Positions 1-63,906 of a DNA stretch of 63,906 nucleotides are shown here, piece after piece; position 1 is the stretch's first letter; every line of letters starts with the position of its first letter. Where the stretch lies: the IMG/VR virus record IMGVR_UViG_3300037325_000356, positions 1 through 63,906 of that record; one strand, written 5' to 3'. This stretch comes from a virus. The notes under the pieces are model-generated. The model searched no databases. It had not been told where the DNA came from and saw only the letters and a program-made list of their open reading frames with translations. Both the position numbers and the translations under genes were made by a program.

Positions 1-85
1 TTCTAGTTGTAGAGTTTGTCGTTTCTACCTTCTTACTATTAGTAAGAGATCTAAACGACAGACACAGCAACTAGAACTCGCTTCT
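1..85 (+). repeat. Nested-palindrome element, copy 1 (cut by window end)
   Basis: Right two thirds of the dispersed element described at 60551. Its first bases do not continue the normal left arm but read like the reverse complement of the right arm, suggesting an assembly junction through the hairpin. Bases 9-129 are identical to the last 121 bases of the window. Confidence 0.85.
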
Positions 86-128
86 AGTCAGTATTTTACC
101 TGACTCTAGTATTGGGGACTTTGGGCAA

Positions 129-154
129 GAAAAAACCCGCGCGGGGCGGGTTTA
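129..154 (-). terminator. Terminator of the BRO-like gene at 172-840
   Basis: On the minus strand an AACCCGC/GCGGGTT stem with a CCCGC-type loop is followed by TTTTTTCTT. It lies 18 bases beyond the stop codon of the minus gene. Confidence 0.85.
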
Positions 155-171
155 TTACGGGCGATCGACCG

Positions 172-840
172 TTAAATCTTGAAATCTATAACTTCATAGA
201 AAAATGATTCTATGCAATTCGCTACGGCATCACAAGGTTTCTCACCACGGCTGATCCGCACAGCCGCCGATTCCTGTACCGCACTGATCCGCCGTAAAGC
301 TTTACGCCCAAAACTGTCGCGGGTTAAAGCTACTGGGTTCCCTAGCTCTTCCTTTATCTGCTTTGCTGTCTTTCCAAACAATCCCCTGTTGATAGCGTCA
401 ATAGGTGTCGAATAGTGGAAAAACGAGATCTCCTTACCCGCAGCCTCGCGACTTTGTTTGATAGCTGATGTGAACTCCCAAAACAGCTCCTTAACCGCAA
501 GGCGATCCACTATCCAAGCTTGACGCTCTTCTAGTCCTAACTCGATCCCTAATTGTTCAAAGGCGATTGACCGGATTGAATCCCCAAAACCCGCAGCTAA
601 TATTTTGGCAACTTCTATATTTTGGTTAACCGATGATTCCCATGTGGCGATCGCTAGAAAATCTTCCAGTGAAATTAAAGCAACTTTGGGAGTGCCATCA
701 GTTTTTTTATTGACAATGATTCCGGTAAATTTGCCGATAACTAAATCCTTGCCCAGAAAGGCTTTGAGCGATTTAGAGGCGATTTTTTTCCGATAACTGT
801 CTGCCCTGTAATTGAGAATGACTTCTGGGGACTCATGCAC
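172..840 (-). CDS. BRO/KilA-type antirepressor-like protein (C-terminal family A)
   Basis: A 222-residue protein. Its C-terminal third contains NRGLFGKTA, shared (as NRSLFGKTA) with the proteins at 6008 and 62555, and a final region ending in a conserved helix, so it belongs to the same family; the N-terminal half differs from theirs. In phages such modular proteins act as DNA-binding antirepressors or regulators. The ATG is the one embedded at the foot of the GGTGC hairpin (834-870) that precedes several of these genes. Terminators lie just downstream and upstream, so it is monocistronic. The specific role is inferred only from family resemblance. Confidence 0.65.
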   Translation of the reverse strand: MHESPEVILNYRADSYRKKIASKSLKAFLGKDLVIGKFTGIIVNKKTDGTPKVALISLEDFLAIATWESSVNQNIEVAKILAAGFGDSIRSIAFEQLGIELGLEERQAWIVDRLAVKELFWEFTSAIKQSREAAGKEISFFHYSTPIDAINRGLFGKTAKQIKEELGNPVALTRDSFGRKALRRISAVQESAAVRISRGEKPCDAVANCIESFFYEVIDFKI

Positions 841-870
841 CGGAAGTTTACGCTTTGCGGTGCTTTCTAT
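834..870 (-). promoter_or_regulatory. 5' leader hairpin GCACCG...CGGTGC of a BRO-like gene
   Basis: On the minus strand GCACCGCAAAG...CTTCCGGTGC forms a stem directly in front of, or including, the start codon. It is one of four related leader hairpins (also 1654, 6751 and 63333), with several base changes relative to the other three. Confidence 0.6.
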
Positions 871-874
871 CTAA

Positions 875-898
875 GAAAAAACCCGCGCGGGGCGGGTT
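875..898 (-). terminator. Terminator of the gene at 908-1630
   Basis: Same AACCCGC/GCGGGTT hairpin plus T-run as at 129, ten bases downstream of the minus gene. Confidence 0.85.
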
Positions 899-907
899 AG
901 GTGCTGT

Positions 908-1630
908 CTATTTGGTGGATGTTGAGTCTATAAGGGCGATCGTCTCATCGTGATTTTTCCCTGACGATCGCAGCATATGATAGCTGTAATAAGTGCGATT
1001 CAATTGCTCCATTAGTGCATAGTCATCTGGGTTGTAATCGTCAATATGTTTTAAAGACAATCCTGCCGCTGTCTTCAATTTGTTAACCTCAGCCCCGTAG
1101 TTGACGGTAATCGAGAGTTTGTCGCCGTCTTCTTTTAGCCAGTCGGTGAACATATCACGAAACTGTTGCCGATGAGTTTGACGCGCGACAATCACACGCT
1201 GGCGGTCTTCTTTCTCACGTTTGATGTTGAAAGCATCCGCCCAAAGCTGATCTATTGCGACACCAATTAGGTCGTCACAGGTATCTGTTGCCGATTCATA
1301 CCCGGCTTTGTCCAACACTCTCAATATGCGCTGGAAGTCGATCAAGTTTACTGCTAAAGTTTTGTTTTTGTTAAATTCGGTCTTACAATCAAAAAAGACT
1401 ACTTGGGGGGTCTTGGAACCCTTAGCTAGTAATCGTTTCAAGGTTTGAGCCGTGTAATTTTGTGTGTCTTGATTCAACCAGTTGATGCCTATTTGGGGAA
1501 CGCCGATCGCGAAACTCCCATCATCTTCTAGCATCAAACCTTCAAACCCTAAATTCCCGATACTGACTGTGGCGATCGTAGCTTTGCGTGTTATAGCCTT
1601 GCCGTTAAAATCGTGTGGTATGATAGCCAT
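908..1630 (-). CDS. BRO-N-like antirepressor-family protein
   Basis: A 240-residue protein. Residues 10-70 (RKATIATVSIG..., EGLMLEDDGSFAIG) match the N-terminal unit of the protein at 6008 (RKATIAIVKMG..., EGLRFEDNGEYAVA), the BRO-N-like DNA-binding module. The central part carries DQLWADAFN followed by R/Q-rich helices, comparable to QLFSDAFG in 6008, while the C-terminal part is different. It is preceded by the conserved promoter/hairpin leader and followed by a terminator, so it is a single-gene transcription unit. A regulatory role is inferred from the family. Confidence 0.65.
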   Translation of the reverse strand: MAIIPHDFNGKAITRKATIATVSIGNLGFEGLMLEDDGSFAIGVPQIGINWLNQDTQNYTAQTLKRLLAKGSKTPQVVFFDCKTEFNKNKTLAVNLIDFQRILRVLDKAGYESATDTCDDLIGVAIDQLWADAFNIKREKEDRQRVIVARQTHRQQFRDMFTDWLKEDGDKLSITVNYGAEVNKLKTAAGLSLKHIDDYNPDDYALMEQLNRTYYSYHMLRSSGKNHDETIALIDSTSTK

Positions 1631-1653
1631 AGTTGCCTTGTTTGATAAGGGGA

Positions 1654-2375: not shown

Positions 2376-2547
2376 ATTTTTAAAAGATTGTCTGACTTGA
2401 TTGTAGTGGCTAGCCTGTCTCAAAGCAGCATTATTTGAGGTATTAAAGCCCTGCTATACTCTGTTCTTTGGGTTTTCCCGTACAGCACCTTCAGACGGCT
2501 TTAAAACCCCATAGAGTTCCTTCCGATCGCCGGGCACGTCATTCTTC

Positions 2548-2656
2548 AGAAGCGAGGTTAGAAGTCCTTCACACTTACTGTAGAGTCTGTCGTTTGAATA
2601 GTCTTACTATTAGTAAGAGATCCAAACGACAGACACATCAGGTAGGACTCGCTTCT
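2548..2656 (+). repeat. Nested-palindrome element, copy 2
   Basis: Full element; inner loop variant with GAATAGTCTTACT. Followed by the 9-bp stem CCTGACTCA-ATACA-TGAGTCAGG and TTTTGG (2681-2707). Confidence 0.9.
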
Positions 2657-2756
2657 ATTCTACCTTTTACCTGACTCAATACATGAGTCAGGTTTTGGTA
2701 AAATTGAAGGGAAAAAGTGCCACCCGCCCGGTAGGTTCCAGCCGCCCGATCGGGAG

Positions 2757-3085
2757 CATCGAGCGTTCAGACAACCGTTCAGCCGTGTTCAGCCGTGAAC
2801 GCATCTGAACGGTTACAGGGAGGGGCGTTCAGGCGTTCAGACGAGCGTTCAGAAAATTTAATGAGAGGCTTTTAGAGGCGTTCAGACACTCTGAACGACT
2901 GAATAATCGAACACCGTGCGATCGGTTCTAACTGGCACAGTGCGCGACGTTCAGACGTTCAGACAAGAGTTCAGCCGTGTTCAGCCGTGAACGCATCTAA
3001 ACGGTACAGTGCGCGAGGTTCAGGCGTTCAGACAAGCGTTCAGACTAGCGTTCAATACTCTGAACGCCTGAATAATCGAATTCAA
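2757..3085 (+). repeat. GTTCAGA/TCTGAAC repeat array A
   Basis: Non-coding block of more than ten GTTCAG-type octamers in direct and inverted order, including the dyad GTTCAGACACTCTGAAC at 2880-2896 and recurring strings such as ACAGTGCGCGA and GAACGCCTGAATAATCGAA. Related arrays lie at 14918 (inverted), 20566 and 37286. Confidence 0.85.
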
Positions 3086-3136
3086 CCCACCCGATCGGTT
3101 CGATACGCACACCCTTTGTGTCAATGGTTTGTATTC

Positions 3137-3244
3137 AGAAGCGAGGTTAGAAGTCCTCACCGTTACTGTAGAGTCTGTATTTTAATTTGTCTTACTATTA
3201 GTAAGAGATCCAAACGACAAGCACAGCAGGTAGAACTCGCTTCT
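3137..3244 (+). repeat. Nested-palindrome element, copy 3
   Basis: Full element, followed by the CCTGACTCA...TGAGTCAGG hairpin with TTTT (3257-3284). It is the last repeat before the + strand gene at 3360. Confidence 0.9.
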
Positions 3245-3359
3245 AGTCTCCCTTTTACCTGACTCAATACATGAGTCAGGTTTTGGTAAAATCGAAGGGA
3301 AAAAGTGCCACCCGCCCGGTAAGTTAATCTTTGAGAATACCGTTTAAACCAGGAAATAA

Positions 3360-5502: not shown

Positions 5503-5661
5503 CTGTTCTCTTCTGACTTTGTTGCCTCTTATCATAGCCTTAAGGCCACATCGCAACCTCAAAACGTAGGTTTTCCCCGACAGCACCTTCAGACGGCTTT
5601 AACCGGGAAAATGAGTCTTAATCTCTCACCGATCGCCCCGCCCGGTGCACCGTCAATTTTT

Positions 5662-5770
5662 AGAAGCGAGTTCACAATTCCTTCACCTTTACTGTAGAGT
5701 CTGTCGTTTAAGTTGTCTTACTATTAGTAAGAGATCCAAACGACAAGCCCATCAGGTAGCACTCGCCTCT
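5662..5770 (+). repeat. Nested-palindrome element, copy 4
   Basis: Loop variant AAGTTGTCTTACT; outer right arm ends CGCCTCT. Followed by the CCTGACTCA...TGAGTCAGG hairpin (5779-5806). Confidence 0.9.
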
Positions 5771-5827
5771 AGTCTCCCTTTTACCTGACTCAATACATGA
5801 GTCAGGTTTTGGTAAAATCGAAGGCGT

Positions 5828-6007: not shown

Positions 6008-6724
6008 TTAAGAGTAAAAGTCGATCGCGTCAGTGACTGCTAACAGCGGTTCCAGCCCTCTGTCTATCAACCTCACGGCGTGACCTTCAATTCTGTCTAT
6101 CAACACCAAAGATGCGGCACTATGGGTACTTCTCAGTTCATTTCTGTCGCACGATCGCTCTGCACAAAGTTTGGCTGCTGTTTTCCCGAATAGCGATCGG
6201 TTGATTTTGTCTGAGCAATTCGAGTACACGAACTTTCGGTAATTCTCCGAGACTTCATTTTGCTTGCCCAAATATTCCTTTATTGCGTCGGTCAAAGTGC
6301 GACGGGTAATTTTCCCGGCTAGTCGGGCGGTTAGATATTCTTGCCGATTGTGCTTGTCAAATTCAATCCCAAATGCGTCTGAGAATAACTGGGTGAGTGC
6401 TAGTCCGACTAATGCAAGGTTTAACTCAAGAGCTTTTTTGTTTCCCCTTGAGGACAAAACTACAATGACTTTCTCAAACTCCAAAAGTGTAACACAGTTG
6501 ACAGCCTTTGGGTTCAATGTAGTACGCGCTTTGGATAACTGGAAATCCTCACCCAGTATAGCTTTGATGTCTCTTGATGCGTGAACTTTGGATAACTGGA
6601 ATATACTACAAATCTGTGAAACTGCTACCGCATATTCCCCATTATCCTCAAACCTGAGACCTTCTATTTCCAAAGTTCCCATTTTGACGATCGCGATCGT
6701 AGCTTTGCGTGTTAGAATACTCAT
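6008..6724 (-). CDS. BRO-like antirepressor, two-module (N module B, C module A)
   Basis: A 238-residue protein. N-terminal residues 1-100 (RKATIAIVKMG, FEDNGEYAVAVSQIC, ASRDIKAILG, NCVTLLEFEKVI) form a BRO-N-like unit resembling 908-1630. The C-terminal ~105 residues (RLAGKITRRTLTDAIKEYL, NRSLFGKTA, IDRIEGHAVRLIDRG) are almost identical, also at DNA level, to those of 62555. The gene is therefore a mosaic. It has the shared promoter/hairpin leader and its own terminator. Role as a DNA-binding regulator is inferred from the BRO/KilA family. Confidence 0.75.
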   Translation of the reverse strand: MSILTRKATIAIVKMGTLEIEGLRFEDNGEYAVAVSQICSIFQLSKVHASRDIKAILGEDFQLSKARTTLNPKAVNCVTLLEFEKVIVVLSSRGNKKALELNLALVGLALTQLFSDAFGIEFDKHNRQEYLTARLAGKITRRTLTDAIKEYLGKQNEVSENYRKFVYSNCSDKINRSLFGKTAAKLCAERSCDRNELRSTHSAASLVLIDRIEGHAVRLIDRGLEPLLAVTDAIDFYS

Positions 6725-6750
6725 TAGTTGACCTGCTTTTTAGGTTTACT

Positions 6751-6832
6751 CATGCACCGGAAATTCGAGTTTCGCGGTGCTTTTCTATTGTAGCATAATA
6801 TCAAAGGTTTGCACTAAAATGCGGTGACGCTC
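6751..6832 (-). promoter_or_regulatory. Conserved promoter plus leader hairpin of BRO-like gene
   Basis: Same ~80 bases as at 1654-1735, with TATTATGCTACAAT and the GCACCGCGAAA...TTTCCGGTGC stem just before the gene at 6724. Confidence 0.65.
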
Positions 6833-7330
6833 AAACTCCACAAGTGTAACACAGTTGACAGCCTTTGGGTGCAATGTAGTACGCGCTTTGAGGAATTGGA
6901 AACCCGCTCCTAGTATAGCCTTGAGGTCTCTTGATGCGTTCTTTATGAGGAACGAGAATATACTACAAATCTGTGAAACTGCTATCGCATAGTTCTGCCT
7001 TGTACCTTTATTGCGATCGGTTGTCACTCGACATAACTGAAAACCCGCACCCAATATACCTTTCAGCCATTTTGGTGCCCTAATTGGTATAACTGAAAAC
7101 AGCGTCGCGACTTGCTGTTGTGCCCTTCTACCGCTTCTCTGTTTGTCTTGTCTTGATTAAGCCAGAATCCTCTGCCAGTATAACTTTGATGTCTCTTTTG
7201 ACTTGATTAGTGATTAAGCCAAAAAGGCTAGCGACTTGCTGTTGTGCGATCGCATATTCCCCATTGTCATCAAATCGGAGACCTTCAAACTCAAAACTCC
7301 CGATACTGACTGTGATGCGTTTCTCGACAA
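6833..7330 (-). pseudogene. Tandem decayed BRO-N modules
   Basis: Read from 7330 downwards the minus strand encodes TVSIGSFEFEGLRFDDNG..., then IKVIL, in-frame stops, and further on YAIAVSQICSIF, ASRDLKAILGAG and NCVTLVEFE, i.e. two or three diverged copies of the N-terminal unit of 6008-6724 without starts and with frameshifts. An 89-codon open stretch (6785-7054) is only a fragment of this. Confidence 0.75.
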
Positions 7331-9332: not shown

Positions 9333-9439
9333 ATCTAGCATTATTTTAGAGCTTGGTTAACTGCCTATTAACTGTCTGGCAGTCAAACATTTTTACTACA
9401 ATCGTACTATGCACATAGCTAGAACCTAGCAAAAATGCT
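9333..9439 (+). repeat. Left-flank repeat, copy 1
   Basis: Begins CTAGCATTATTTTAGAGC and contains GTCTGGCAGTCAAACATT and CTATGCACATAGCTAG; it abuts palindrome copy 5. Same segment at 29796, 60451 and 63685, always directly left of an element. Confidence 0.9.
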
Positions 9440-9548
9440 AGAAGCGAGTTCACAATTCCTTCACCTTTACTGTAGAGTCTGTCGTTTAAGTTGTCTTACT
9501 ATTAGTAAGAGATCCGAACGACAGACACATCAATTAGAACTCGCTTCT
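9440..9548 (+). repeat. Nested-palindrome element, copy 5
   Basis: Full element between the terminator of 9642-9866 and the promoter region of 7988-9067, the typical cassette boundary position. Confidence 0.9.
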
Positions 9549-9596
9549 AGCATACCTTTTACCTGACTCTAGTATTGAGGACTTTTGCCAAGAAAA

Positions 9597-9926: not shown

Positions 9927-9943
9927 TACTTTTTTAATTCTTC

Positions 9944-10051
9944 AGAAGCGAGGTTAGAATTCCTCACCGTTACGGTAGAGTCTGTCGTTTTTACCTTCTT
10001 ACTATTAGTAAGAGATCCGAACGACAAACTCATCAATTGGAACTCGCTTCT
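9944..10051 (+). repeat. Nested-palindrome element, copy 6
   Basis: Full element lying 17 bases from the TTGACA of the cassette to its left. Followed by AAAAAACCCGGCGATCGC, the left half of a terminator whose right arm is missing. Confidence 0.9.
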
Positions 10052-10259
10052 AGTCAGCATTATACCTAACTCTAGTATTGTGGACTTTTGGCAAGAAAAA
10101 ACCCGGCGATCGCATCACTTTTGAAACCGTTTGTTTTAGGCAGGTGCTACCAAGTCCGCAGCCTCAAACCTATGCCGTGTAATGTTTTGACCTAATTTTG
10201 CCGAATGCAAAGTCCGCACATCGAATGATGCTATACGCCGCCCGTTTCCATAGAAACCA

Positions 10260-12681: not shown

Positions 12682-12734
12682 CCCTTCCCAAAGCTATTAA
12701 AAATTGAAAGACCGCCCGCCCGATCGGTCAAGAC

Positions 12735-12842
12735 AGAAGCGAGGTATCAAGTCATCACCTTTACTGTTGTGTCTGTCGTTTCTACCTTCTTACTATTAGT
12801 AAGAGATCCAAACGACAGACACAGCAACTAGAACCCGCCTCT
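12735..12842 (+). repeat. Nested-palindrome element, copy 7
   Basis: Full element, outer right arm GAACCCGCCTCT. Sits between the terminator of 12937 and the promoter of 12622. Confidence 0.9.
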
Positions 12843-12890
12843 ATCCTCCCTTTTACCCGGCTCATGTATTGTGGACTTTGGGCAAGAAAA

Positions 12891-13718: not shown

Positions 13719-13730
13719 TGGTCTTTATCC

Positions 13731-13838
13731 AGAAGCGAGGTATCAAGTCATCACCTTTACTGTTGTGTCTGTAGTTTAAGTTGTCTTACTATTAGTAAGA
13801 GATCCAAACGACAAACACAGCAACTAGAACCCGCTTCT
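13731..13838 (+). repeat. Nested-palindrome element, copy 8
   Basis: Full element, loop variant AAGTTGTCTTACT. Confidence 0.9.
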
Positions 13839-13878
13839 ACTCTACCTTTTACCCAACTCAAGTATTGGGGGATTTCTG

Positions 13879-20190: not shown

Positions 20191-20353
20191 GGGTTTGGGT
20201 CAAGATATTTTTACAGAGTTTTTAGGGGCTTCACGGCACTTTAAGAGTCAAAACGATAAAAGATACGCATCAAGACAGGAACGTGTTCTAGCGGCTAAAA
20301 TGTGGCCAGTCCTAAAGCGGACTGCATTGCAGAGACACCGCCCTTTAATTTTC

Positions 20354-20461
20354 AGAAGCGAGGTTAGAAGTCCTCACCGTTACTGTTGTGTCTGTCGTTT
20401 CTACCTTCTTACTATTAGTAAGAGATCCGAACGACAGACACATCAATTAGAACTCGCTTCT
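20354..20461 (+). repeat. Nested-palindrome element, copy 9
   Basis: Full element. Bases 20191-20353 between the operon promoter and this copy hold no visible gene. Confidence 0.9.
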
Positions 20462-20565
20462 AGGTTGTGTTTTACCTGACTCTAGTATTCGGGAATTTTA
20501 GGCGAGAATTGAAGGGGAAAAGTGCCACCCGTCCGCCCGTCCGCCCAAAGCCGATCGGTTAGGGT

Positions 20566-20880: not shown

Positions 20881-20913
20881 CGATCGCCCGTCCGCCCCGC
20901 CCGGTCAATTTTC

Positions 20914-21025
20914 AGAAGCGAGTTCACAATTCCATCACCACCTTTACTGTAGAGTCTGTAGTTTAAGTTGTCTTACTATTAGTAAGAGATCCAAACGACA
21001 AACTCATCAGCTAGAACTCGCCTCT
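20914..21025 (+). repeat. Nested-palindrome element, copy 10
   Basis: Slightly longer copy (CATCACCACC insertion), right arm CGCCTCT. Confidence 0.9.
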
Positions 21026-21082
21026 AGTCAGAACTTTACCTGACTCTAGTATTGAGGAATTTTAGGCGAGAATTGAAGGTGC

Positions 21083-21206: not shown

Positions 21207-21298
21207 CGCCCGATCGCCCGATCGGTTCCAACCGTCCGCCCGATCGCCCGATCGGTTCCAACCGTCCGCCCGCCCGATCGCCGCGGGCGTGATTCTTC

Positions 21299-21410
21299 AG
21301 AAGCGAGTTCACAATTCCATCACCACCTTTACTGTAGAGTCTGTGTTTTAATTTGTCTTACTATTAGTAAGAGATCGAAACGACAAACTCATCAGCTAGA
21401 ACTCGCCTCT
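21299..21410 (+). repeat. Nested-palindrome element, copy 11
   Basis: Shares the CATCACCACC insertion with copy 10, its closest relative. Confidence 0.9.
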
Positions 21411-21458
21411 AGTCAGCACTTTACCTGACTCTAGTATTCGTGGATTTTGGCAAGAAAA

Positions 21459-22343: not shown

Positions 22344-22355
22344 TGGTTTGTATTC

Positions 22356-22463
22356 AGAAGCGAGGTATCAATTCCTCATCGTTACTGTAGAGTCTGTCGT
22401 TTTTACCTTCTTACTATTAGTAAGAGATCCAAACGACAGACACAGCAACTAGCACCCGCTTCT
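22356..22463 (+). repeat. Nested-palindrome element, copy 12
   Basis: Full element, right arm GCACCCGCTTCT. Confidence 0.9.
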
Positions 22464-22511
22464 ATCCTCCCTTTTACCTGACTCTAGTATTGAGGGATTT
22501 AGGCAAGAAAA

Positions 22512-24913: not shown

Positions 24914-25014
24914 TGGGATGTGTAAAATATTTTGAAACAGGCTCTAACCGCCCGGTCGTTTGGACTTTTTTACGACTAAAACCGTGAATACTAGAGTCGG
25001 GTAAAAGGTAGACT

Positions 25015-25126
25015 AGAAGCGAGTTCTAGTTGCTGTGTCTGTCGTTTGGATCTCTTACTAATAGTAAGAAGGTAGAAACGACAGACTCAACAGTAAAGGT
25101 GAAGAGGAAATTGTGAACTCGCTTCT
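25015..25126 (-). repeat. Nested-palindrome element, copy 13 (reverse orientation)
   Basis: Lies between divergent cassettes (24857 minus, 25518 plus); orientation is that used with + strand genes. Confidence 0.9.
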
Positions 25127-25198
25127 GTCTTGACTGATCGGGCGGGGCGATCGGGCGATCGGGCGATCGTCCTATCACCGGCGATCGTCCTATCACCG

Positions 25199-26000: not shown

Positions 26001-26043
26001 TTCCCAAAAGCCGCCAATACATGAGTCAGGTATAATGCTGACT

Positions 26044-26151
26044 AGAAGCGAGTTCTAGTTGCTGTGTCTGTCGTTTGGATCTCTTACTAATAGTAAGAAG
26101 GTACAAACGACAGACACAACAGTAACGATGAGGAATTGTGAACTCGCTTCT
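26044..26151 (-). repeat. Nested-palindrome element, copy 14 (reverse orientation)
   Basis: Full element opening the next + strand cassette. Confidence 0.9.
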
Positions 26152-26170
26152 GTCTTGACCGATCGGGCGG

Positions 26171-29795: not shown

Positions 29796-29863
29796 TGTCT
29801 GGCAGTCAAACATTTTTACTACAATCGTACTATGCACATAGCTAGAACCTAGCAAAAATGCTT
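29796..29863 (+). repeat. Left-flank repeat, copy 2
   Basis: Shorter copy starting TGTCTGGCAGTC, abutting palindrome copy 15. Bases 29664-29795 show no gene. Confidence 0.9.
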
Positions 29864-29971
29864 AGAAGCGAGGTATCAATTCCTCACCTTTACTGTAGAG
29901 TCTGTCGTTTGTACCTTCTTACTATTAGTAAGAGATCCAAACGACAGACACAACAGGTAGGACTCGCTTCT
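29864..29971 (+). repeat. Nested-palindrome element, copy 15
   Basis: Full element between divergent cassettes; followed by the CCTGACTCA...TGAGTCAGG hairpin. Confidence 0.9.
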
Positions 29972-30037
29972 AGTCTCCCTTTTACCTGACTCAATACATG
30001 AGTCAGGTTTTTGGTAAAATCCCGGTGCTCTTGAAAA

Positions 30038-34551: not shown

Positions 34552-34590
34552 TGCTTCTTGCCTCGCTGCTGCGATATATTGGGGATGTGC

Positions 34591-34698
34591 AGAAGCGAGG
34601 TATCAATTCCTCACCTTTACTGTTGTGTCTGTCGTTTCTACCTTCTTACTATTAGTAAGAGATCCAAACGACAGACACAACAACTAGAACTCGCTTCT
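34591..34698 (+). repeat. Nested-palindrome element, copy 16
   Basis: Full element between two + strand genes, the exception to the usual orientation rule. CCTGACTCA-like hairpin follows at 34711. Confidence 0.9.
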
Positions 34699-34830
34699 AG
34701 TCTACCTTTTACCTAACTCAATACATGAGTCAGGTTTTTGAAGGCGCACCGGGAAGTTGAATTTGAAAAAATAGAGTCTAGCTGTTGTGTTAGGTTAGAG
34801 CCAAACATCAAAAAAATAGGATAAAAAACA

Positions 34831-37073: not shown

Positions 37074-37079
37074 CAAGAC

Positions 37080-37187
37080 AGAAGCGAGGTATCAAGTCCT
37101 CATCTTTACTGTTGAGTTTGTCGTTTCTACCTTCTTACTATTAGTAAGAGATCCAAACGACAGACACAGCAACTAGAACCCGCCTCT
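37080..37187 (+). repeat. Nested-palindrome element, copy 17
   Basis: Full element, followed by the CCTGACTCA...TGAGTCAGG hairpin at 37201. Confidence 0.9.
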
Positions 37188-37285
37188 AATCTACCTTTTA
37201 CCTGACTCAATACATGAGTCAGGTTTTGGTAAAATTGAAGGGAAAAAGTGCCACCCGCCCGGTAGGTTCCAGCTGCCCGATCGGG

Positions 37286-44911: not shown

Positions 44912-44999
44912 TGGTTTTGATGGAGATATTCTAATGAGGTTTCCTGTCATCCTATACAACAAACCTGACTCATGTATTGAGTCAGGTAAAAGGGAGGAT

Positions 45000-45107
45000 A
45001 GAAGCGGGTTCTAGTTGCTGTGTCTGTCGTTCGGATCTCTTACTAATAGTAAGAAGGTAGAAACGACAAACTCTACCGTAACGGTGAGGACTTCTAACCT
45101 CGCTTCT
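45000..45107 (-). repeat. Nested-palindrome element, copy 18 (reverse orientation)
   Basis: Preceded by the CCTGACTCA/TGAGTCAGG hairpin at 44965. Confidence 0.9.
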
Positions 45108-45126
45108 GTCTTGATCGATCGGGTGG

Positions 45127-45330: not shown

Positions 45331-45371
45331 GCCCAAAGTCCCCAATACTAGAGTCAGGTAAAATACTGACT

Positions 45372-45480
45372 AGAAGCGAGTTCTAGTTGCTGTGTCTGTC
45401 GTTTAGATCTCTTACTAATAGTAAGACAACTTAAACTACAGACTCTACAGTAAAGGTGAAGGAATTGTGAACTCGCTTCT
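45372..45480 (-). repeat. Nested-palindrome element, copy 19 (reverse orientation)
   Basis: Loop variant matching copies 4 and 8; closes the empty cassette. Confidence 0.9.
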
Positions 45481-45504
45481 GAAGAATCACGCCCGCGGCG
45501 ATCG

Positions 45505-52354: not shown

Positions 52355-52389
52355 TTGAAAATCTAAATCACAAATAGGACTCAAAACAA

Positions 52390-53888: not shown

Positions 53889-53897
53889 GTATTTAAT

Positions 53898-56800
53898 ATG
53901 CCTGATCTAAAAATTACAGTGACTGTAGATGATTCTGCTGTATCAGCTTTAGAAGGCAGACTAAGAGGGTTGTCTGGTGCTGCTAGTGGTGTTGGTGGTG
54001 TTGGAGGTTCGGCAACATCTCAGACTCAAAAATTCGGTGAAAGTCTGCAAAGTGTAGGCGGCGCTATGTCAACTTTGGGCGGGTTAACATTAGCAGCAAC
54101 TGCACCCGCAATAGCCGGATTTGGAGCGTCGGCAAAAGCCGCAATTGATTATGAATCCGCACTCGCAGATGTTCAGAAAATTTCAGATTTCAAGGCGGGG
54201 ATGGGTAGCGACTTCTCTAATGGTTTACTCGAATTATCGGCAAGTTTAGGGAGTGTTAACCCTAACGATTTGGCCGCTATATCGGCTGGTATGGTAAGAC
54301 CTGGGCAGAGTGCACAAGACCTGTTATTAGCATCTGAAGCCGTATCGAAAATGGGTGTAGCTTTCAATATGAGTGCGGCAGATTCCGGTAAAGCATTAGG
54401 CAAGTTATCCACAGCTTTTAAAGTGCCTGCACGGGATATGAAAACTTTTGTGGGAGGGCTTAACGAATTATCAAACAAGACAGGGATTGCAGGGAAAGAT
54501 TTAGTTAATTTTATGTCGAGTAGTTCTGAATTAGCGGGTAGAATGCCAGCAACCGACGTAGCGGCAATGGGCACGGCCTTAATTAGCGCGGGTATAGCCT
54601 CAGCTAGAAGCGGGCGATCTATCTCGTCTATATCCTCTAAGTTGATGATGGCTAGCAGCTTATCAAATAAAGCTAAAGCCTCTTTTAAAGATATGGGAGT
54701 AAGTGCTAAAGACTTGGAAGCTGATGTCTCAAAGCGCGGCGCACCGGCTATTGTTGACTTTTTAGAAAAAATCAACAAAATACCGACAGCCGCCAAAAAA
54801 ACCGAGGCATTGAATAACATTTTTGGTGCTGACTTTGCACGAACGGCTGGGGTATTAGCTAATAATTTGGGACAGGTTAGAAGCAACTTGAAAGCAGTTT
54901 CAGATCAGAAAGCGGTAGCCTCGTCAGTTGATAGAGAATATGCAGTCAGGCAAGCAACAACAGCTAACCAATTAAAAACATTTGGTGCAACAGCACAAAG
55001 AGTCGGGATCGCAGTAGGATCGGGGCTTTTGCCTGCTATTAATGACGTGGGAAAGGCGGTTCTGCCGATGGCTAATGAGTTTGCAAAATTTGCTACCGCT
55101 AACCCAGGTATTGTAAAAAATGCTGTAGCGTTTACTGGGGTTGCAGCGGCGGGCGGTTTGGCTTTAAGCGTCGCGGGTAGTCTCGCAACCTCGATCGGCG
55201 CGATCGCCACCGCAGCACCTATTATCGGAGGCGCGGTTGCAGGCATCGGAGGGGCGGTAGTAGGGGCGGGCGGCGCGGTAGTAGGTGCTGGCGTGGCAAT
55301 GGGCACCGCTTTGGTTGGTATCGGATCGGCCGCTGTGAGTGTTGGAGGCGCGGTAGTAGGTGCTGGCGTTTCGATGGGAACCGCTGTTGTTGGAGCGGCA
55401 ACAGGAGCCGCCACACTAGCAGGCAGTTTATTATCAATTCCAGCCGTCGGTTTGGCCGCAGCAACAGTCGCAGGTTTAGGCTTAGGTGTCGCCATCCACA
55501 AAGCGATTAACCCAGCAACCGATCTAAATACTATTATTCCTGATATAGGCTTAGGTGCTAAGCAATCGTGGCAAGATGTCAGCACTGCCGGATCTCAACT
55601 TTGGAGCGATTTAAAACTCGGAGGCAAACAAACATTAACAGATTTAGGAAGCGGTTTCACTTCAGTTAAAGATACTGTTGGATCGGCTTTTACAGGTGTT
55701 ACCGAGTCCGTCGGCTCTGCTTTTACAGGTGCTTTAACAAACGTGACCGGGTTTGTTACTTCGATCGGTACAAGTTTCTCGACTGTCGGAACTACTATCA
55801 GCACAGCTTTTTCTACAGTCGGAACCTCTATTAGCACAGCGTTTACAGGCGCTTTAACAAACGTGACCGGGTTTGTTACTTCGATCGGTACAAGTTTCTC
55901 GACTGTCGGAACTACTATCAGCACAGCCTTTTCTACAGTCGGAACCTCTATTAGCACAATCTTTACAGGATTAGGTTCAACTATTACCGGGTTTGTTACT
56001 TTGATCGGTACAAGTTTCTCGACTGTCGGAACTACTATCACTACAGCCTTTTCTACAGTCGGAACCTCTATTAGCACAATCTTTACAGGATTAGGTTCAA
56101 CTATTACCGGGTTTGTTACTTCGATCGGTACAAGTTTCTCGACTGTCGGAACTACTATCACTACAGCCTTTTCTACAGTCGGAACCTCTATTAGCACAAT
56201 CTTTACAGGATTAGGTTCAACTATTACCGGGTTTGTTACTTCGATCGGTACAAGTTTCTCGACTGTCGGAACTACTATCACTACGGCCTTTTCTACAGTC
56301 GGAACCTCTATTAGCACAATCTTTACAGGATTAGGTTCAACTATTACCGCTTTTGTTACTTCCGTTAGCACTGCATTTTCTACAATCGGAACCTCGATCA
56401 GCACGGCAATGAGTGCCGCAATGACTAGCGTACAATCTGCGGTTTCAGGGATGCAAACAGCCATATCGACTATGGCTTCCAGTATTCAAACAGCTTTTTC
56501 TACAATGGGTACAGCCATCAGTACCGCGATGTCCGGTGCTTTGACTGCCATACAGGCATCTATTACCAGTATTCAAAGCGCGATCTCTGCAATGGCAACC
56601 TCTATGCAGGCTAGCTTTGCTGCTGCGGGTGCGGCCATGCAATCAGGAATGACGGCGGCTGTTGCTGGCGTTCAAGCTGCTTTGACTGGGTTATCTTCAG
56701 CCGCTAGTGCTGCCGGATCAGCTTTAGCGGCCGCTGCAAATTCTGCCGTCGGAGCGTGGCAAGCTTTAGCAGGTGCTATTGGTGCAGCCGTTTCTGCTGC

Positions 56801-57125
56801 ACAGAGCGCCGCTACTGCTGTTGCTGGGGCGGCTAGTAGTGCTGCTAGTGCAGTTGCTGGTATTGCAGGCGGCGGTGCCAAGGGTGTGTCTAGCGGTGCT
56901 AAAGGCTTAGACGCTTCTCCTTCTCCGTTCCCTCGCTATACCGCACCCGGTGGCCTCGGAGGCGGTGCAACTAATATCAATTTCTCACCACAAATCGGAG
57001 TGAATGGCGTTTCCTCTTTCAATGCGAGGGATTTTATCCGCGAATTGCGATCGCATGAATCCGAATTTGCAAACTACCTTAGTAGTCTCACTAACAGACA
57101 AAATCGCTTTAAATATTCCGATTGA
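53898..57125 (+). CDS. Tape measure protein
   Basis: A 1075-residue protein. The N-terminal 350 residues show the phage tape measure (TP901-type) core: GFGASAKAAIDYESALADVQKIS, LLLASEAVSKMGVAF, GLNELSNKTGIAGKDLVNFM. Residues ~400-560 are hydrophobic (Gly/Val/Ala-rich), likely membrane-active. About residues 615-830 consist of 40-residue repeats (see 55741), then Ala/Ser-rich helices and a C-terminal domain (GGGATNINFSPQIGVNG). Length sets the tail length. Last gene of the late operon. Confidence 0.9.
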   Translation: MPDLKITVTVDDSAVSALEGRLRGLSGAASGVGGVGGSATSQTQKFGESLQSVGGAMSTLGGLTLAATAPAIAGFGASAKAAIDYESALADVQKISDFKAGMGSDFSNGLLELSASLGSVNPNDLAAISAGMVRPGQSAQDLLLASEAVSKMGVAFNMSAADSGKALGKLSTAFKVPARDMKTFVGGLNELSNKTGIAGKDLVNFMSSSSELAGRMPATDVAAMGTALISAGIASARSGRSISSISSKLMMASSLSNKAKASFKDMGVSAKDLEADVSKRGAPAIVDFLEKINKIPTAAKKTEALNNIFGADFARTAGVLANNLGQVRSNLKAVSDQKAVASSVDREYAVRQATTANQLKTFGATAQRVGIAVGSGLLPAINDVGKAVLPMANEFAKFATANPGIVKNAVAFTGVAAAGGLALSVAGSLATSIGAIATAAPIIGGAVAGIGGAVVGAGGAVVGAGVAMGTALVGIGSAAVSVGGAVVGAGVSMGTAVVGAATGAATLAGSLLSIPAVGLAAATVAGLGLGVAIHKAINPATDLNTIIPDIGLGAKQSWQDVSTAGSQLWSDLKLGGKQTLTDLGSGFTSVKDTVGSAFTGVTESVGSAFTGALTNVTGFVTSIGTSFSTVGTTISTAFSTVGTSISTAFTGALTNVTGFVTSIGTSFSTVGTTISTAFSTVGTSISTIFTGLGSTITGFVTLIGTSFSTVGTTITTAFSTVGTSISTIFTGLGSTITGFVTSIGTSFSTVGTTITTAFSTVGTSISTIFTGLGSTITGFVTSIGTSFSTVGTTITTAFSTVGTSISTIFTGLGSTITAFVTSVSTAFSTIGTSISTAMSAAMTSVQSAVSGMQTAISTMASSIQTAFSTMGTAISTAMSGALTAIQASITSIQSAISAMATSMQASFAAAGAAMQSGMTAAVAGVQAALTGLSSAASAAGSALAAAANSAVGAWQALAGAIGAAVSAAQSAATAVAGAASSAASAVAGIAGGGAKGVSSGAKGLDASPSPFPRYTAPGGLGGGATNINFSPQIGVNGVSSFNARDFIRELRSHESEFANYLSSLTNRQNRFKYSD
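55741..56360 (+). repeat. 120-bp tandem repeats in the tape measure gene
   Basis: Five nearly identical units starting at 55741, 55861, 55981, 56101 and 56221, each 40 codons (GTSFSTVGTTI-type), differing by a few bases each, so recently homogenised. Confidence 0.9.
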
Positions 57126-57160
57126 ATCCACCAATACATGAGTCGGGTAAAAGGTAGATT

Positions 57161-57268
57161 AGAAGCGAGTCCTACCTGTAGAGGCTGTCGTTTGGATCTC
57201 TTACTAATAGTAAGAAGGTAAAAACGACAGACTCTACAGTAACGGTGAGGACTTCTAACCTCGCTTCT
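57161..57268 (-). repeat. Nested-palindrome element, copy 20 (reverse orientation)
   Basis: Lies just after the late operon; left half of the middle arm partly deleted. Bases 57269-57689 hold no convincing gene. Confidence 0.85.
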
Positions 57269-57689
57269 GAATACCTGAGAAAGCGTTACCTGAAAACTGG
57301 GCGGACAGTACACCCTATAACTCAAATGTCTTCTGAGATGTGTTCAATTTGACGATTAAGAACCTTTAGACTCGTTTCGATGGCAATATACGTTTGCCAC
57401 GATATCACGCGCTGTAGGTAGCAGAGATTAGGGCTTGACAGAAAGACAATCAAGAGAGATGATAAGTATGAAGGAAAAGACAACAGGACACCCGCCTAGG
57501 GATTGAAAAACTGCAAACAATAAACCCTGTTGTTTTTTCTTTCTCTTAAATTTAGTCCTTGACAAATTGACCACAGAGAGAGAGAATACAAAAGCCTGCA
57601 TTCCACTAATGCGTTGGCTAGCGATTGATACGGGGATAACTTCTGACACTTACCCGGATCGCTCTATTTCGTACCTCCTTCAAACAGAA

Positions 57690-57801: not shown

Positions 57802-58581
57802 TTATCGATTATCAAAATAATTACAGATCGCTGTGTCTAACTCTTCAGTTACCCTGTAGACACCAATCAATCTTTGCGTACCATTGCACAAGCGCGACTC
57901 ATTTTTTCTTGCGTCTGTTCGGGAGATCGGGATAGCCATGCTGACTGCCTTCCCTAGTTCCGGTCGGTACTCTGTTACCATCGAGATCGGATAACCCAAC
58001 TGTTCGGCACGTTCGGCCACACCACACCAAACCTCGCTATCTTCAGCTTTAAGCGCGGGTTGACCGACTCCGAGCATATCCATTGAAAAGTCTTGTAGAT
58101 GCTGCTTAAATCGCGGGTTATTGATGTCTATTTCTAGCCTGTCCAATATTTTGAAAAGTTCCACTAAACGAATATCAGCAGGTGGAAGTTGTAGCGGTTT
58201 TGGTTCTGGCGGCGCGATCGGCTGTTCGACTTCATATTTCCCCGTCTTGCGGATACTGGGGATAACTTCTGCATGAATCCATCGGTTTAATGCTTTTCCT
58301 AGCTCAGTGCGAGAGCGCGAAACAAACATTGTCAGGGCGGGTTCTGACAGGATTAGCATATTTTGATCCCGCTCGATAGTGTCGGAGATGAGTTTGTTAG
58401 TAAAAAAGTCATCTCCCAAATCCTCCCGTATCATAGCTTCTACCGCCGTGACTGTTGTACTAGACCCGATCGCCTGCAATATATCTTTAGCCACAAACCA
58501 GGGTTCGCCATTGATCGTAACAATTCGGACTTGATTGCTTTCAAACTCAAACTCAAACTCAAACTTTGCTAGAAGAGACAT
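57802..58581 (-). CDS. BRO-N domain antirepressor
   Basis: A 259-residue protein. Residues 18-110 are a BRO-N domain (VRIVTINGEPWFVAKDILQAIG, MLILSEPALTMFVSRSRTELGKALNRWIHAEVIPSIRKTGKY, the classical phage antirepressor sequence). The N-terminus has a FEFEFEFE stretch coded by TTTGAG repeats. The C-terminal half (YPISMVTEYRPELGKAVSMAIP) is different from KilA-C. A DNA-binding regulator is expected. Third gene of the clamp operon. Confidence 0.85.
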   Translation of the reverse strand: MSLLAKFEFEFEFESNQVRIVTINGEPWFVAKDILQAIGSSTTVTAVEAMIREDLGDDFFTNKLISDTIERDQNMLILSEPALTMFVSRSRTELGKALNRWIHAEVIPSIRKTGKYEVEQPIAPPEPKPLQLPPADIRLVELFKILDRLEIDINNPRFKQHLQDFSMDMLGVGQPALKAEDSEVWCGVAERAEQLGYPISMVTEYRPELGKAVSMAIPISRTDARKNESRLCNGTQRLIGVYRVTEELDTAICNYFDNR

Positions 58582-59141: not shown

Positions 59142-60302
59142 TTATTCTTGGATAGAGACGACTGCTATTATGTTGATCAACTCACCATGTAATGTTTGGC
59201 TAACGATTTTTACCATCGCCGGATTAAATAACAAATCACAAGTCTCCGCGGTTAGTATACTAACAGCAACCAGAGTGTAATCGAGATTTAACCTGACTGT
59301 ATAACCATCTGTTAGCGCGTCTTTCTTAAATCCCACTTCTTCTGTGAACAAGTCGGACTCATGCTCGATCAATATTTTCTCGGTGTCTTTCTCGAAAGTG
59401 AATTTGATAGTATTACTAACTACCAGCTTATTACTAGGGAGGAGGACTTTTGCTCGTTTGAGTGCTAACATCAGTGCTTTAGGTTCCACCGTGTAGGGAT
59501 TACTAAACGGCAGCGTTAACAGTCGCTCTATAGGCGGATAATTTGACCCGTCATTGAGACGAACTGCAAAAGAAGTATCTTCATGTGCACAGTGAAAGAC
59601 TGCTATAGAATCAGTGAAGTAGATAGCGATTTTCCCCGAAACTTTCAAGAGTTTACAAAGTGATAATACTTTTTGACCCGGTATTAAAACAGAGTAATTC
59701 TTCTCTGGCAGAATTGGGTAAACAACATTAACTGCTTGCCAGCGACTCGATCGCCTGGTATCCGTCCCCATTGTTGTTAGAGTTCGTTCTTCAACATTAA
59801 AGTTGATTTTTGCCGAACAATAACTTTGATTCTCAGCACTCAGAGACGGGTAAACGTTCAGCAATCCCTCACGCAAAACCTCACCTTCTAATTCGATACA
59901 GGTTGACGTTTGAGCGCCGCTCAAAATGTCTTCTGTTAGTGGGTAAAATCCTCTGGCATCTTCTGCACACGGTGATTTCCACTTCGATCGCCCTTGTTTT
60001 ATCAACAATTGCCCTTTATTTGGTGACACCAAATCAATTTCTGATTCTTTGTCTAGTCTTTCGACAATTTGCAAAAACTGAGGAGAAATAACCATCACTC
60101 CATCTGGCAAACTCTCTCCCCAATCTCGATCGCATAGAACTGTCTCGCTCGTTCCGTCAAAACTCGTCAGGGTTACGGTTCCTCCTGTCTTTGATAATTT
60201 AAATCCAGTTAACAGGATTTCTTCTGTAGACCCGCCCTTTGCTCGCTTTTGGCTCATCTTTAGAGCCTCAACGTCCGCTTTTATCTTTTTTACTGCTATC
60301 AT
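59142..60302 (-). CDS. DNA polymerase sliding clamp (DnaN/beta-like)
   Basis: A 386-residue protein, the length of bacterial beta clamps. KKIKADVEALKMSQKR at the N-terminus; TGFKLSKTGGTVTLTSFDGTSE, RTLTTMGTDTRRSSRWQAV near residue 175 and IRLNDGSNYPPIERLL near 240 correspond to clamp strands; RAKVLLPSNKLVVSNTIKFTFEKDTEKILI near 290 to the third domain. Tethers polymerase; with no virus polymerase seen it must serve the host enzyme. Class I promoter, good start. Confidence 0.8.
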   Translation of the reverse strand: MIAVKKIKADVEALKMSQKRAKGGSTEEILLTGFKLSKTGGTVTLTSFDGTSETVLCDRDWGESLPDGVMVISPQFLQIVERLDKESEIDLVSPNKGQLLIKQGRSKWKSPCAEDARGFYPLTEDILSGAQTSTCIELEGEVLREGLLNVYPSLSAENQSYCSAKINFNVEERTLTTMGTDTRRSSRWQAVNVVYPILPEKNYSVLIPGQKVLSLCKLLKVSGKIAIYFTDSIAVFHCAHEDTSFAVRLNDGSNYPPIERLLTLPFSNPYTVEPKALMLALKRAKVLLPSNKLVVSNTIKFTFEKDTEKILIEHESDLFTEEVGFKKDALTDGYTVRLNLDYTLVAVSILTAETCDLLFNPAMVKIVSQTLHGELINIIAVVSIQE

Positions 60303-60450: not shown

Positions 60451-60550
60451 TCATCTAGCATTATTTTAGAGCTTGGTTAACTGTCTGGCAGTCAAACATT
60501 TTTACTACAATCGTACTATGCACATAGCTAGAACCTAGCAAAAATGCTTA
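60451..60550 (+). repeat. Left-flank repeat, copy 3 (long)
   Basis: Longest copy, from CTCATCTAGCATTATTTT to AAAAATGCTT; abuts palindrome copy 21. Confidence 0.9.
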
Positions 60551-60658
60551 GAAGCGAGTTCACAATTCCATCACCTTTACTGTTGTGTCTGTCGTTTCTA
60601 CCTTCTTACTATTAGTAAGAGATCCAAACGACAGACACAGCAGCTAGAACTCGCTTCT
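60551..60658 (+). repeat. Nested-palindrome element, copy 21 (reference description)
   Basis: Three nested inverted repeats: outer AGAAGCGAGTTC/GAACTCGCTTCT (12 bp), middle TGTGTCTGTCGTTT/AAACGACAGACACA (14 bp), inner CTTACTA-T-TAGTAAG. The left side between outer and middle is about 20 bases, the right about 7. The 22 copies share ~85-95 percent identity by eye. Confidence 0.95.
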
Positions 60659-60701
60659 AATCTAACTTTTACCTGACTCTAGTATTGAGGGATTTTGGCA
60701 A

Positions 60702-62500: not shown

Positions 62501-62510
62501 ACTACAACAA

Positions 62511-62540
62511 AAAACCCGTCAAATCTTAGACGGGTTTTTT
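62511..62540. terminator. Bidirectional terminator between convergent genes
   Basis: AAAAACCCGTC-AAATCTTA-GACGGGTTTTTT. Confidence 0.9.
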
Positions 62541-62554
62541 GTATCTGTTCGCAA

Positions 62555-63304
62555 TCAAGAGTAAAAGGCGATCGCGTCAGTGACAGCTATTTGCGGTTCC
62601 AGCCCTCTGTCTATCAACCTCACTGCGTGACCTTCAATTCTGTCTATCAACACCAAAGATGCGGCACTATGGGTACTTCTCAGTTCATCTCTGTCGCACG
62701 ATCGCTCTGCACAAAGTTTGGAGGCTGTTTTCCCGAATAGCGATCGGTTGATTTTGTCTGAGCAATTCGAGTACACGAACTTTCGGTAATTCTCCGAGAC
62801 CTCGTTAGTCTCCAAATATTCCTTTATTGCGTCTGTCAAAGTGCGACGGGTAATTTTCCCGGCTAGTCGGGCATTAGTCTTAGCCTCTGCCGCGCCCTGT
62901 TCATAAATCCGACCAAACCGATCGTCAATAATGATATCTAAAGTTGTGGCAATTAATGCCGTGACGATCGCGCCTGCAAGAATATTGTTCTGTTTGTCAT
63001 GGTATCGGTAATAGATGGCTGCGCTTGTGGTATCCCACAGGTTGAGCTTTGACTTACCGCCTGACTCCATTTTGTACTGCCCTTGCAACGTTGTGAAACC
63101 CGCTCCCAGCATAGCTTTGAGGTCTTCAGACAGCCGATTTTGCAACGTTGTGGAACGGTTCAATCCGATACTTTCTGCAAGCCCTGCACCTGAGAGATAA
63201 TTGATAAATTTCCCGGTAGTTGAAGAGATTTGATTAGCCGTGTAAGCGTCGATCGCGATCGAGCCGATGTAGATTTCTGTCTTGAAAACTGTTAGAATTG
63301 TCAT
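62555..63304 (-). CDS. BRO-like antirepressor, two-module (N module C, C module A)
   Basis: A 249-residue protein starting MTILTVFKTE behind AGGCGAAC. The N-terminal half (IYIGSIAIDAYTANQIS, FINYLSGAGLAESIGL, LKAMLGAGFTTLQGQ) also occurs in the broken gene at 63404 and in the remnant at 1741. The C-terminal ~105 residues (RLAGKITRRTLTDAIKEYL, NRSLFGKTA) are nearly identical to those of 6008. A mosaic regulator. Preceded by the hairpin leader and promoter. Confidence 0.75.
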   Translation of the reverse strand: MTILTVFKTEIYIGSIAIDAYTANQISSTTGKFINYLSGAGLAESIGLNRSTTLQNRLSEDLKAMLGAGFTTLQGQYKMESGGKSKLNLWDTTSAAIYYRYHDKQNNILAGAIVTALIATTLDIIIDDRFGRIYEQGAAEAKTNARLAGKITRRTLTDAIKEYLETNEVSENYRKFVYSNCSDKINRSLFGKTASKLCAERSCDRDELRSTHSAASLVLIDRIEGHAVRLIDRGLEPQIAVTDAIAFYS

Positions 63305-63332
63305 CAGTTCGCCTGCTTTATAGGTTGACTCA

Positions 63333-63405
63333 TGCACCGGAAATTCAAGTTTCGCGGTGTTTTTTTATTGTAGCATAATAGCAAAGGTTTGCACTAAAAT
63401 GCGTT
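63333..63405 (-). promoter_or_regulatory. Conserved promoter plus leader hairpin of BRO-like gene
   Basis: Same module as at 1654 and 6751, with ATTATGCTACAAT and a GCACCG-type stem (here one base changed to ACACCG). Confidence 0.6.
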
Positions 63406-63745
63406 AAGGAAGTGTTGAGCTTGTGGTATCCCACAGGTTGAGCTTTGACCATGAGTTTTGAGTGTTTTTGTACTGCCCTTGTAACGTGGTAAAACCCGCT
63501 CCCAGCATAGCTTTGAGGTCTTCAGACAGCCGATTTTGTAACGTGGTATTTCTGTGTAATCCGATACTTTCTGCAAGCCCCGCACCTGAGAGATAGTTGA
63601 TAAATTTGCCTGTCGCGGGGTCAATCTCATTAGCCGTGTAACCGTCAACTGTTACCGCGCCGATCGCAAATTCTGTCTTGAAAACTGTCTGGCAGTCAAA
63701 CATTTTAACTACAATCGTACTATGCACATAGCTAGAACCTAGCAA
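63404..63745 (-). pseudogene. Truncated BRO-like gene (N module C)
   Basis: 113 codons whose residues 18-108 (QTVFKTEFAIGAVTV, FINYLSGAGLAESIGL, AMLGAGFTTLQGQ) match the N-terminal half of 62555, then diverge. The 5' end is replaced by the left-flank repeat at codon 4 or so; the upstream frame reads through the repeat. No C-terminal module follows. Confidence 0.7.
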
Positions 63746-63753
63746 AAATGCTT
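63685..63753 (+). repeat. Left-flank repeat, copy 4
   Basis: Starts inside the broken BRO-like frame (CTGTCTGGCAG) and abuts palindrome copy 22. Confidence 0.9.
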
Positions 63754-63862
63754 AGAAGCGAGTTCACAATTCCCTCACCGTTACGGTAGAGTTTGTCGTT
63801 TCTACCTTCTTACTATTAGTAAGAGATCTAAACGACAGACACAGCAACTAGAACTCGCTTCT
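63754..63862 (+). repeat. Nested-palindrome element, copy 22
   Basis: Full copy; 63786-63906 equals 9-129 exactly. Confidence 0.9.
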
Positions 63863-63906
63863 AGTCAGTATTTTACCTGACTCTAGTATTGGGGACTTTG
63901 GGCAAG

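What the first reader, a model, noticed from the sequence alone, without database searches (positions are those of the whole stretch)
1..63906. A 22-copy triple-nested palindrome marks gene-cassette boundaries
The sequence shows 22 copies (17 in one orientation, 5 in the other) of a ~108-bp element with three nested inverted repeats (12, 14 and 7 bp), asymmetric side arms, and often a following CCTGACTCA/TGAGTCAGG hairpin. In most cassettes, read in the direction of the gene, the order is element (one fixed orientation), promoter, GAGAGA leader, gene, hairpin terminator, next element. Copies at 34591 and 45000/45372 break the rule. Integron attC sites and MITEs have comparable folding, but no recombinase was seen. 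Inference: a recombination or folding element that turns the virus genome into exchangeable expression cassettes. I know of no described family with this sequence.
Basis: partly seen in the sequence, partly recalled or inferred. Interest (0 to 1): 0.9.

Follow-up and report, generated by a model that had tools for sequence, protein, structure and literature searches.

The report
Repeated hairpin joints in cyanophage genomes
A virus of cyanobacteria carries about 21 copies of a folded ~110-base DNA element between its genes, and the copies, together with those of sister viruses, show that genes are lost, swapped and reshuffled by recombination at these elements.

Summary
The element (E) is real: 22 matches (E<1e-24), 21 if the contig closes on itself (121-bp end overlap), 17 + and 5 -, none inside a gene. 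Good copies fold far better than shuffles (z -7 to -10). Pairing rests on invariance; there is no covariation signal.

Three findings point to recombination at E. (1) Copies are mosaics: site incompatibility rises with distance (p<0.0002). (2) Promoter-side and terminator-side flank classes, each shared by several copies, assort independently across E. (3) A sister group of cyanophages (G394, G396, G392 and others; TerL 46% aa) carries its own dispersed element family. There, a regulator cassette flanked by two direct elements (G392, G394) is missing in G396/G395, which keep one hybrid element with the outer flank of each.

Corrections: orientation follows the genome rather than the gene (permutation p=0.25; one orientation per contig in sisters). 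Single genes also moved between lineages without E. Enrichment of breakpoints at E in sisters is modest (21/63 vs 14 expected, p=0.028, pairs not independent).

Best reading: a recombinogenic intergenic module, working like the PeSLs of T4-type phages but with unrelated sequence. No integrase found; not attC, not a MITE.

The parts
1..89 (+). element copy, 5' end missing at contig start (may be the same copy as 63751-63866)
2545..2660 (+). element copy, followed by distal hairpin at 2670
3134..3248 (+). element copy, middle stem degenerate; distal hairpin at 3258
5659..5774 (+). element copy; distal hairpin at 5784
9437..9552 (+). element copy, left-flank class Q, terminator-type right flank
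9941..10055 (+). element copy, promoter (9926, -) 15 bp from its left edge
12732..12846 (+). element copy, left-flank class R
13728..13842 (+). element copy, promoter (13718, -) 10 bp from its left edge
20351..20465 (+). element copy
20911..21029 (+). element copy
21296..21414 (+). element copy
22353..22467 (+). element copy, promoter (22343, -) 10 bp from its left edge
25011..25129 (-). element copy between divergent genes
26040..26154 (-). element copy, left-flank class R
29861..29975 (+). element copy, left-flank class Q joined to the distal hairpin
34588..34702 (+). element copy between two + genes; distal hairpin at 34712
37077..37191 (+). element copy, left-flank class R joined to the distal hairpin
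44996..45110 (-). element copy; promoter for the - gene 41336-44695 on its right side (44911)
45368..45483 (-). element copy at the edge of block 45505-57125
57157..57271 (-). element copy directly after the tape-measure gene; the one copy whose right arm matches the TGTAGAG left arm fully
60547..60662 (+). element copy, most regular fold (z -10)
63751..63866 (+). element copy at contig end, left-flank class Q

Best explanation
E is a dispersed, palindrome-rich intergenic module that serves as the joint between transcription units of a cyanophage genome. It usually sits between the terminator of one unit and the promoter of the next. Because ~21 copies are alike, ordinary homologous recombination between copies, within one genome or between co-infecting phages, swaps what lies on either side: promoter side, terminator side and whole gene cassettes. 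Direct copies give cassette loss or gain and leave one hybrid copy; inverted copies could give inversions. Gene conversion keeps the copies of one lineage alike while lineages drift apart. Shown: multi-copy nature, mosaicism, shuffled flanks, and in sister phages a cassette difference through two elements. Inferred: that the machinery is general homologous recombination, and that the palindromes (cruciform or single-strand hairpin) raise its rate or insulate neighbouring units.
For: Mosaic copies: incompatible site pairs 0.28 at 1-8 columns, 0.61-0.67 beyond 20; 0 of 5000 permutations. Left and right flank classes assort independently (Mantel r 0.013, p 0.36). Sister phages: element-cassette-element in G392, G394 and G004b against one element in G396 and G395 with the 5' flank of the first copy and the 3' flank of the second. 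Cassettes starting ~20 bp from elements in G394 and G392. Gene order of the window scattered against G394 and the Symploca contig, broken adjacencies holding an element 11/14, conserved 1/4. All copies intergenic.
Against: No gain or loss at a family I copy has been observed: the only close relative, L001, has its four elements in the same places. Enrichment of breakpoints at elements in sister phages is small (21/63 against 14.2), many gene-content changes are elsewhere, and adjacency p is 0.083. Single ORFs moved between lineages without elements. No recombinase was found, so the machinery is not identified.
Confidence: 0.62

Rival explanations
1. E is mainly a regulatory or insulating structure (cruciform, protein-binding site or barrier between a terminator and the next promoter), kept for gene expression; recombination between copies is a by-product of having many alike sequences.
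For: Copies lie between terminator-like hairpins and promoters; paired columns are nearly invariant.
Against: Several copies have lost much of the middle stem; three pairs of places hold two or three copies with no gene between (2545/3134, 20351/20911/21296, 44996/45368), and many genes with good promoters have no element.
Confidence: 0.2
2. E is recognised by a dedicated, structure-specific recombinase (integron-like cassette exchange).
For: Nested hairpin with a one-sided bulge, one genomic orientation in all sister contigs, cassette difference between two direct copies; attC clusters without an integrase have been reported in phages (PMC9892861).
Against: No integrase or recombinase recognised; the attC core GTTRRRY is not enriched and not an invariant part of the element; mosaic switch points lie throughout the element rather than at one point.
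Confidence: 0.08
3. E is a MITE or REP-like non-autonomous mobile element spread by a transposase.
For: Many copies with inverted repeats; two orientations in the window.
Against: No target-site duplication visible in the aligned flanks; none of the gaps listed between sister phages is an element-only insertion into an otherwise unbroken site; none of 386 cyanobacterial genomes has a match (without a positive control) and no phage or plasmid record does; flanks come in shared classes.
Confidence: 0.06
4. E is a structured RNA or RNA processing site.
For: Strong predicted RNA fold.
Against: No Rfam match, no covariation above shuffles, degenerate copies; position after terminators and before promoters suggests little transcription.
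Confidence: 0.04

Closest known systems
PeSLs (promoter early stem-loops) of T4-type phages (Arbiol 2010, Comeau 2014; read here only through PMC4503421 and PMC3950731; originals not held)
   Same: Many intergenic copies of a palindromic module next to promoters, credited with shuffling genes between related phages.
   Different: Unrelated sequence; ~110-bp nested palindrome rather than a promoter plus stem-loop; promoter outside the conserved core; different phage group and host; also present between structural-gene blocks.
HGTV-1 promoter/inverted-repeat motifs of a haloarchaeal myovirus (PMC3950731)
   Same: Repeated intergenic motif with an inverted repeat, proposed to act in transcription and genome shuffling.
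   Different: Motif precedes most ORFs of one genome side and holds the promoter itself; here E is separate from the promoter.
Halovirus HF2 intergenic repeats (PMC8707807)
   Same: Dispersed intergenic repeats in a tailed virus.
   Different: 29-58 bp, with promoter activity shown by reporter; positions conserved among relatives; not nested palindromes.
Integron attC sites and phage-borne attC clusters (PMC9892861)
   Same: Folded recombination sites that delimit cassettes.
   Different: No attC core motif, no integrase, copies mosaic throughout.
Flexible gene modules of cryoconite phages (PMC7468147)
   Same: Near-identical phages differ by exchange of gene modules at fixed places (here G396 and G393, ~99% identical).
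   Different: No shared DNA element is mentioned at those boundaries in the passages read; here some boundaries are elements.

Membership tests
PeSL-type modular shuffling element | multi-copy intergenic palindromic module in one phage genome | tested here: met
   22 copies, none in genes
PeSL-type modular shuffling element | promoter is part of the conserved module | tested here: not met
   promoters are 10-240 bp outside the core and differ between flank classes
PeSL-type modular shuffling element | gene content of related phages changes at the module | tested here: met
   met for the sister group's family II, with modest overall enrichment; not observable for family I
PeSL-type modular shuffling element | sequence homology to T4 PeSLs | tested here: inconclusive
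   no blastn match for E in 50,697 phage records; no direct comparison with PeSL sequences
Integron attC | conserved GTTRRRY core in each site | tested here: not met
   128 in window, 140 expected, no constant place in the aligned copies
Integron attC | integron integrase encoded | tested here: not met
   no integrase in Pfam, PHROGs or NCBIfam scans of most ORFs
MITE / REP | target-site duplication or precise empty site | tested here: not met
   none seen
MITE / REP | related autonomous element or transposase | tested here: inconclusive
   no transposase recognised in the window; 386 cyanobacterial genomes without E
Structured RNA | match to a known family or covariation | tested here: not met
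Structured RNA | stable transcript from E | not testable with these tools
   needs RNA-seq

The most novel reading that the evidence does not exclude
Sister phage lineages each carry a sequence-unrelated family of nested palindromes (family I here, family II in G394/G396/G392), both with nested arms and a one-sided bulge, recognised by a lineage-specific and so far unrecognised structure-binding recombination protein: an integron-like cassette system of cyanophages without a known integrase. The hint is the shared plan, the single orientation per contig in family II, and a weak, unproven resemblance of family I to the reverse complement of family II (mean pair score 15.8 against 14.8 +- 0.3 shuffled; consensus p 0.12).
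Probability: 0.08. Interest if true: 0.88.

Novelty: new variant of a known kind. Interest (0 to 1): 0.6.

Why it matters
Phage genomes are mosaics, but the physical joints are usually invisible. Here the joints are marked, numerous and lineage-specific, and close relatives catch a cassette difference through two joints with a hybrid joint on one side. That makes it testable whether dispersed palindromes raise recombination, how fast gene order can change, and whether scrambling follows from the number of joints (about 21 copies in a scrambled genome, 9 and 7 in two more orderly, near-full-length sisters).

Tried and rejected
Exact core pattern in viral contigs found only L001; in bacterial genomes nothing. 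Portal, sheath and capsid single-protein scans of viral contigs found nothing; TerL alignments did. Homology of family I and family II by sequence is not established (model R1 finds nothing below E 0.68 in sister phages; consensus alignment p 0.12). Covariation as proof of the structure rejected. Gene-coupled orientation rejected. L001 differs from the window near 7250 inside duplicated regulator genes, not at an element. One L176/L179 difference (L176 5303-8339) lies beside sequence that looks, from memory, like an IS200/IS605 end, so it was not counted as an element event. A wide (100 bp) test of elements at gaps gave no clear enrichment; a narrower one gave p 0.028, so this statistic is window-dependent. 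The regulator alignment A4 was too divergent for a collection scan. The original PeSL papers are not held.
Full report
WHAT IS THERE. A single copy used as a query finds 22 copies at E<1e-24, 17 on + and 5 on -. The core runs from AGAAGCGAG to CTCGCTTCT, ~110 bp, with a middle arm TGTGTCTGTCGTTT/AAACGACAGACACA and an inner arm around CTTACTATTAGTAAG; the bulge is ~22 nt on the 5' side and ~7 nt on the 3' side. All 21 full cores are outside genes although 78% of the window is coding; 16 of the 23 intergenic gaps of 150 bp or more hold a copy. The window is an IMG/VR virus record; its ends share 121 bases inside an element, so the genome may be circular or permuted with 21 copies. The virus is a contractile-tail phage (sheath, baseplate J, tape measure, portal, TerL). 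The host is very probably a cyanobacterium: GCGATCGC (the HIP1 motif, from general knowledge) occurs 29 times against 0.5 expected, and the nearest TerL and portal homologues are on a Symploca contig.

STRUCTURE. Good copies fold with z -7 to -10 as RNA, and similarly as DNA. The pairing is specific to register (91.8% paired against 33-49% when slid), but many pairs never vary and covariation is not above shuffles (one search gave no compensatory pair). Some copies have lost the middle stem. Arm types look mixed: left TGTTGTG pairs with right CACAGCA/CACAACA, and left TGTAGAG pairs fully only with the CTCTACA of copy 57157; most TGTAGAG copies carry the other right arm. So the fold is a real property of the element, while its need is not shown.

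MOSAICS. Among 38 informative sites of the 21 copies, incompatible site pairs are rare at short distance (0.28 within 8 columns) and common further apart (0.61-0.67 beyond 20); 0 of 5000 permutations reach this. Flanks come in classes: left Q (9437, 29861, 60547, 63751), R (12732, 25011, 26040, 37077, 44996), P with a TTGACATAAA promoter (9941, 13728, 22353 and, weaker, 3134); right: distal hairpin or terminator hairpins. The two sides assort freely (Mantel r 0.013, p 0.36). For instance left class Q is joined to a terminator at 9437, to the distal hairpin at 29861, and to another terminator at 60547. This is what crossovers inside or at the edge of the element leave behind.

SISTER PHAGES. 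A TerL alignment led to IMG/VR contig G001 and MAG contigs G004a/b with their own repeat; a pattern from that repeat found G394 (66 kb), G396 (63 kb), G392, G393, G395 and a fragment. G392, G394, G396 and G001 are ~80-93% identical and largely colinear; G396/G393 and G396/G395 are ~98-100%. Their family II element is ~105 bp (arms GTCAYAG/CTRTGAC, AT-rich inside, often GGGGTAAAA/TTTTACCCC outside) and all full-length copies in a contig point the same way (G394 9/9, G396 7/7, G392 7/7, G393 6/6), although genes are about equally on both strands in G394 and G396. The window model R1 does not find family II.

EVENTS AT ELEMENTS. (1) G392, G394 and G004b have element - regulator gene - element; G396 and G395 have one element whose 5' flank matches the first (80-90%) and whose 3' flank matches the second (78-90% for G392 and G394, 71% for the diverged G004b; the wrong 3' flank gives 63-70%). 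G395 comes from another metagenome and agrees with G396 at 99.9%, so an assembly error is unlikely. Loss by recombination between the two direct copies is the simplest reading; gain in the others is not excluded. (2) G004a has the 5' flank of one element and the 3' flank of another, and the 4.7 kb with TerL and portal that lies between them in G392 is not in this contig; TerL sits on a separate contig of the same MAG, so an assembly jump or translocation is possible. (3) G394 has 1.63 kb more, starting 21 bp from an element, including a regulator gene 91% identical in DNA to window 866-1581; G004a has the same gene (93.4% to window 1170-1594) also right behind an element. (4) A 121-aa gene in G001/G392 is replaced by an element in G004a/G396. 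(5) G393 has an element where its ~99% identical relative G396 has a gene cassette. Overall 21 of 63 element tests have a junction within 40 bp against 14.2 expected from other intergenic DNA (p 0.028; pairs overlap, so this is weak). Many other gene-content changes do not touch an element.

GENE ORDER. G394 and the Symploca contig show TerL followed by capsid genes in the usual order on one strand; in the window TerL (10775+), portal (30729-), DUF2213-capsid-sheath-tape measure (47621-57125+), baseplate J (4681-) and fibre (39833-) are scattered. Of 18 neighbouring pairs of genes with G394 homologues, 11 of 14 broken adjacencies hold an element and 1 of 4 conserved ones (p 0.083; the pairs were listed by hand). 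The block 45505-57125 is flanked by - elements and carries + structural genes, the same relative orientation as in G394 (elements +, structural genes -), as if inverted together with its elements.

WHAT DOES NOT FIT. Single ORFs at 79-93% DNA identity are shared between the window and the sister group (12959-13622, 14386-14910, 21497-22277, 40338-40975, 62546-63378, 866-1581) while their elements are of different families; much exchange therefore runs through gene homology itself. No recombinase was recognised; the window does encode a sliding clamp (59142-60302) and a replication protein (41336-44695). Not all small ORFs were scanned.

VERDICT. It works like the PeSL modules of T4-type phages (known here through PMC4503421 and PMC3950731) but is not a member by layout or phage group, and sequence kinship could not be tested directly. 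I rate it a new variant of a known kind.

Noticed in passing
59142-60302 (-): Phage-encoded DNA polymerase III beta sliding clamp (DnaN) homologue.
   Followed up: partly
2870-3080, 14940-15340, 20662-20873, 37343-37621: A second dispersed repeat made of GCGTTCAG/CTGAACGC units, with copies up to 100% identical over 78 nt (3003-3080 and 20796-20873), in several intergenic regions.
   Followed up: no
866-1581: Regulator gene segment 91-93% identical in DNA to sister phages whose TerL is only ~46% identical in protein: a recent transfer.
   Followed up: partly
55626-56465 and 40680-40979: 120-bp tandem repeats in the tape-measure gene and 150-bp tandem repeats in a tail-fibre gene.
   Followed up: no
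172-840, 6008-6724, 62555-63337, 21504-22283, 57802-58581: A family of regulator/antirepressor-like genes (PHROG 2657, 129, 130), several of them shared with sister phages at DNA level.
   Followed up: partly
L001 1-922 against window 6071-7250: A near-identical phage (99.6% over 6.7 kb) differs inside tandemly duplicated regulator genes.
   Followed up: partly
10320-10718 (+): Endonuclease / homing-endonuclease-like ORF directly before TerL.
   Followed up: no
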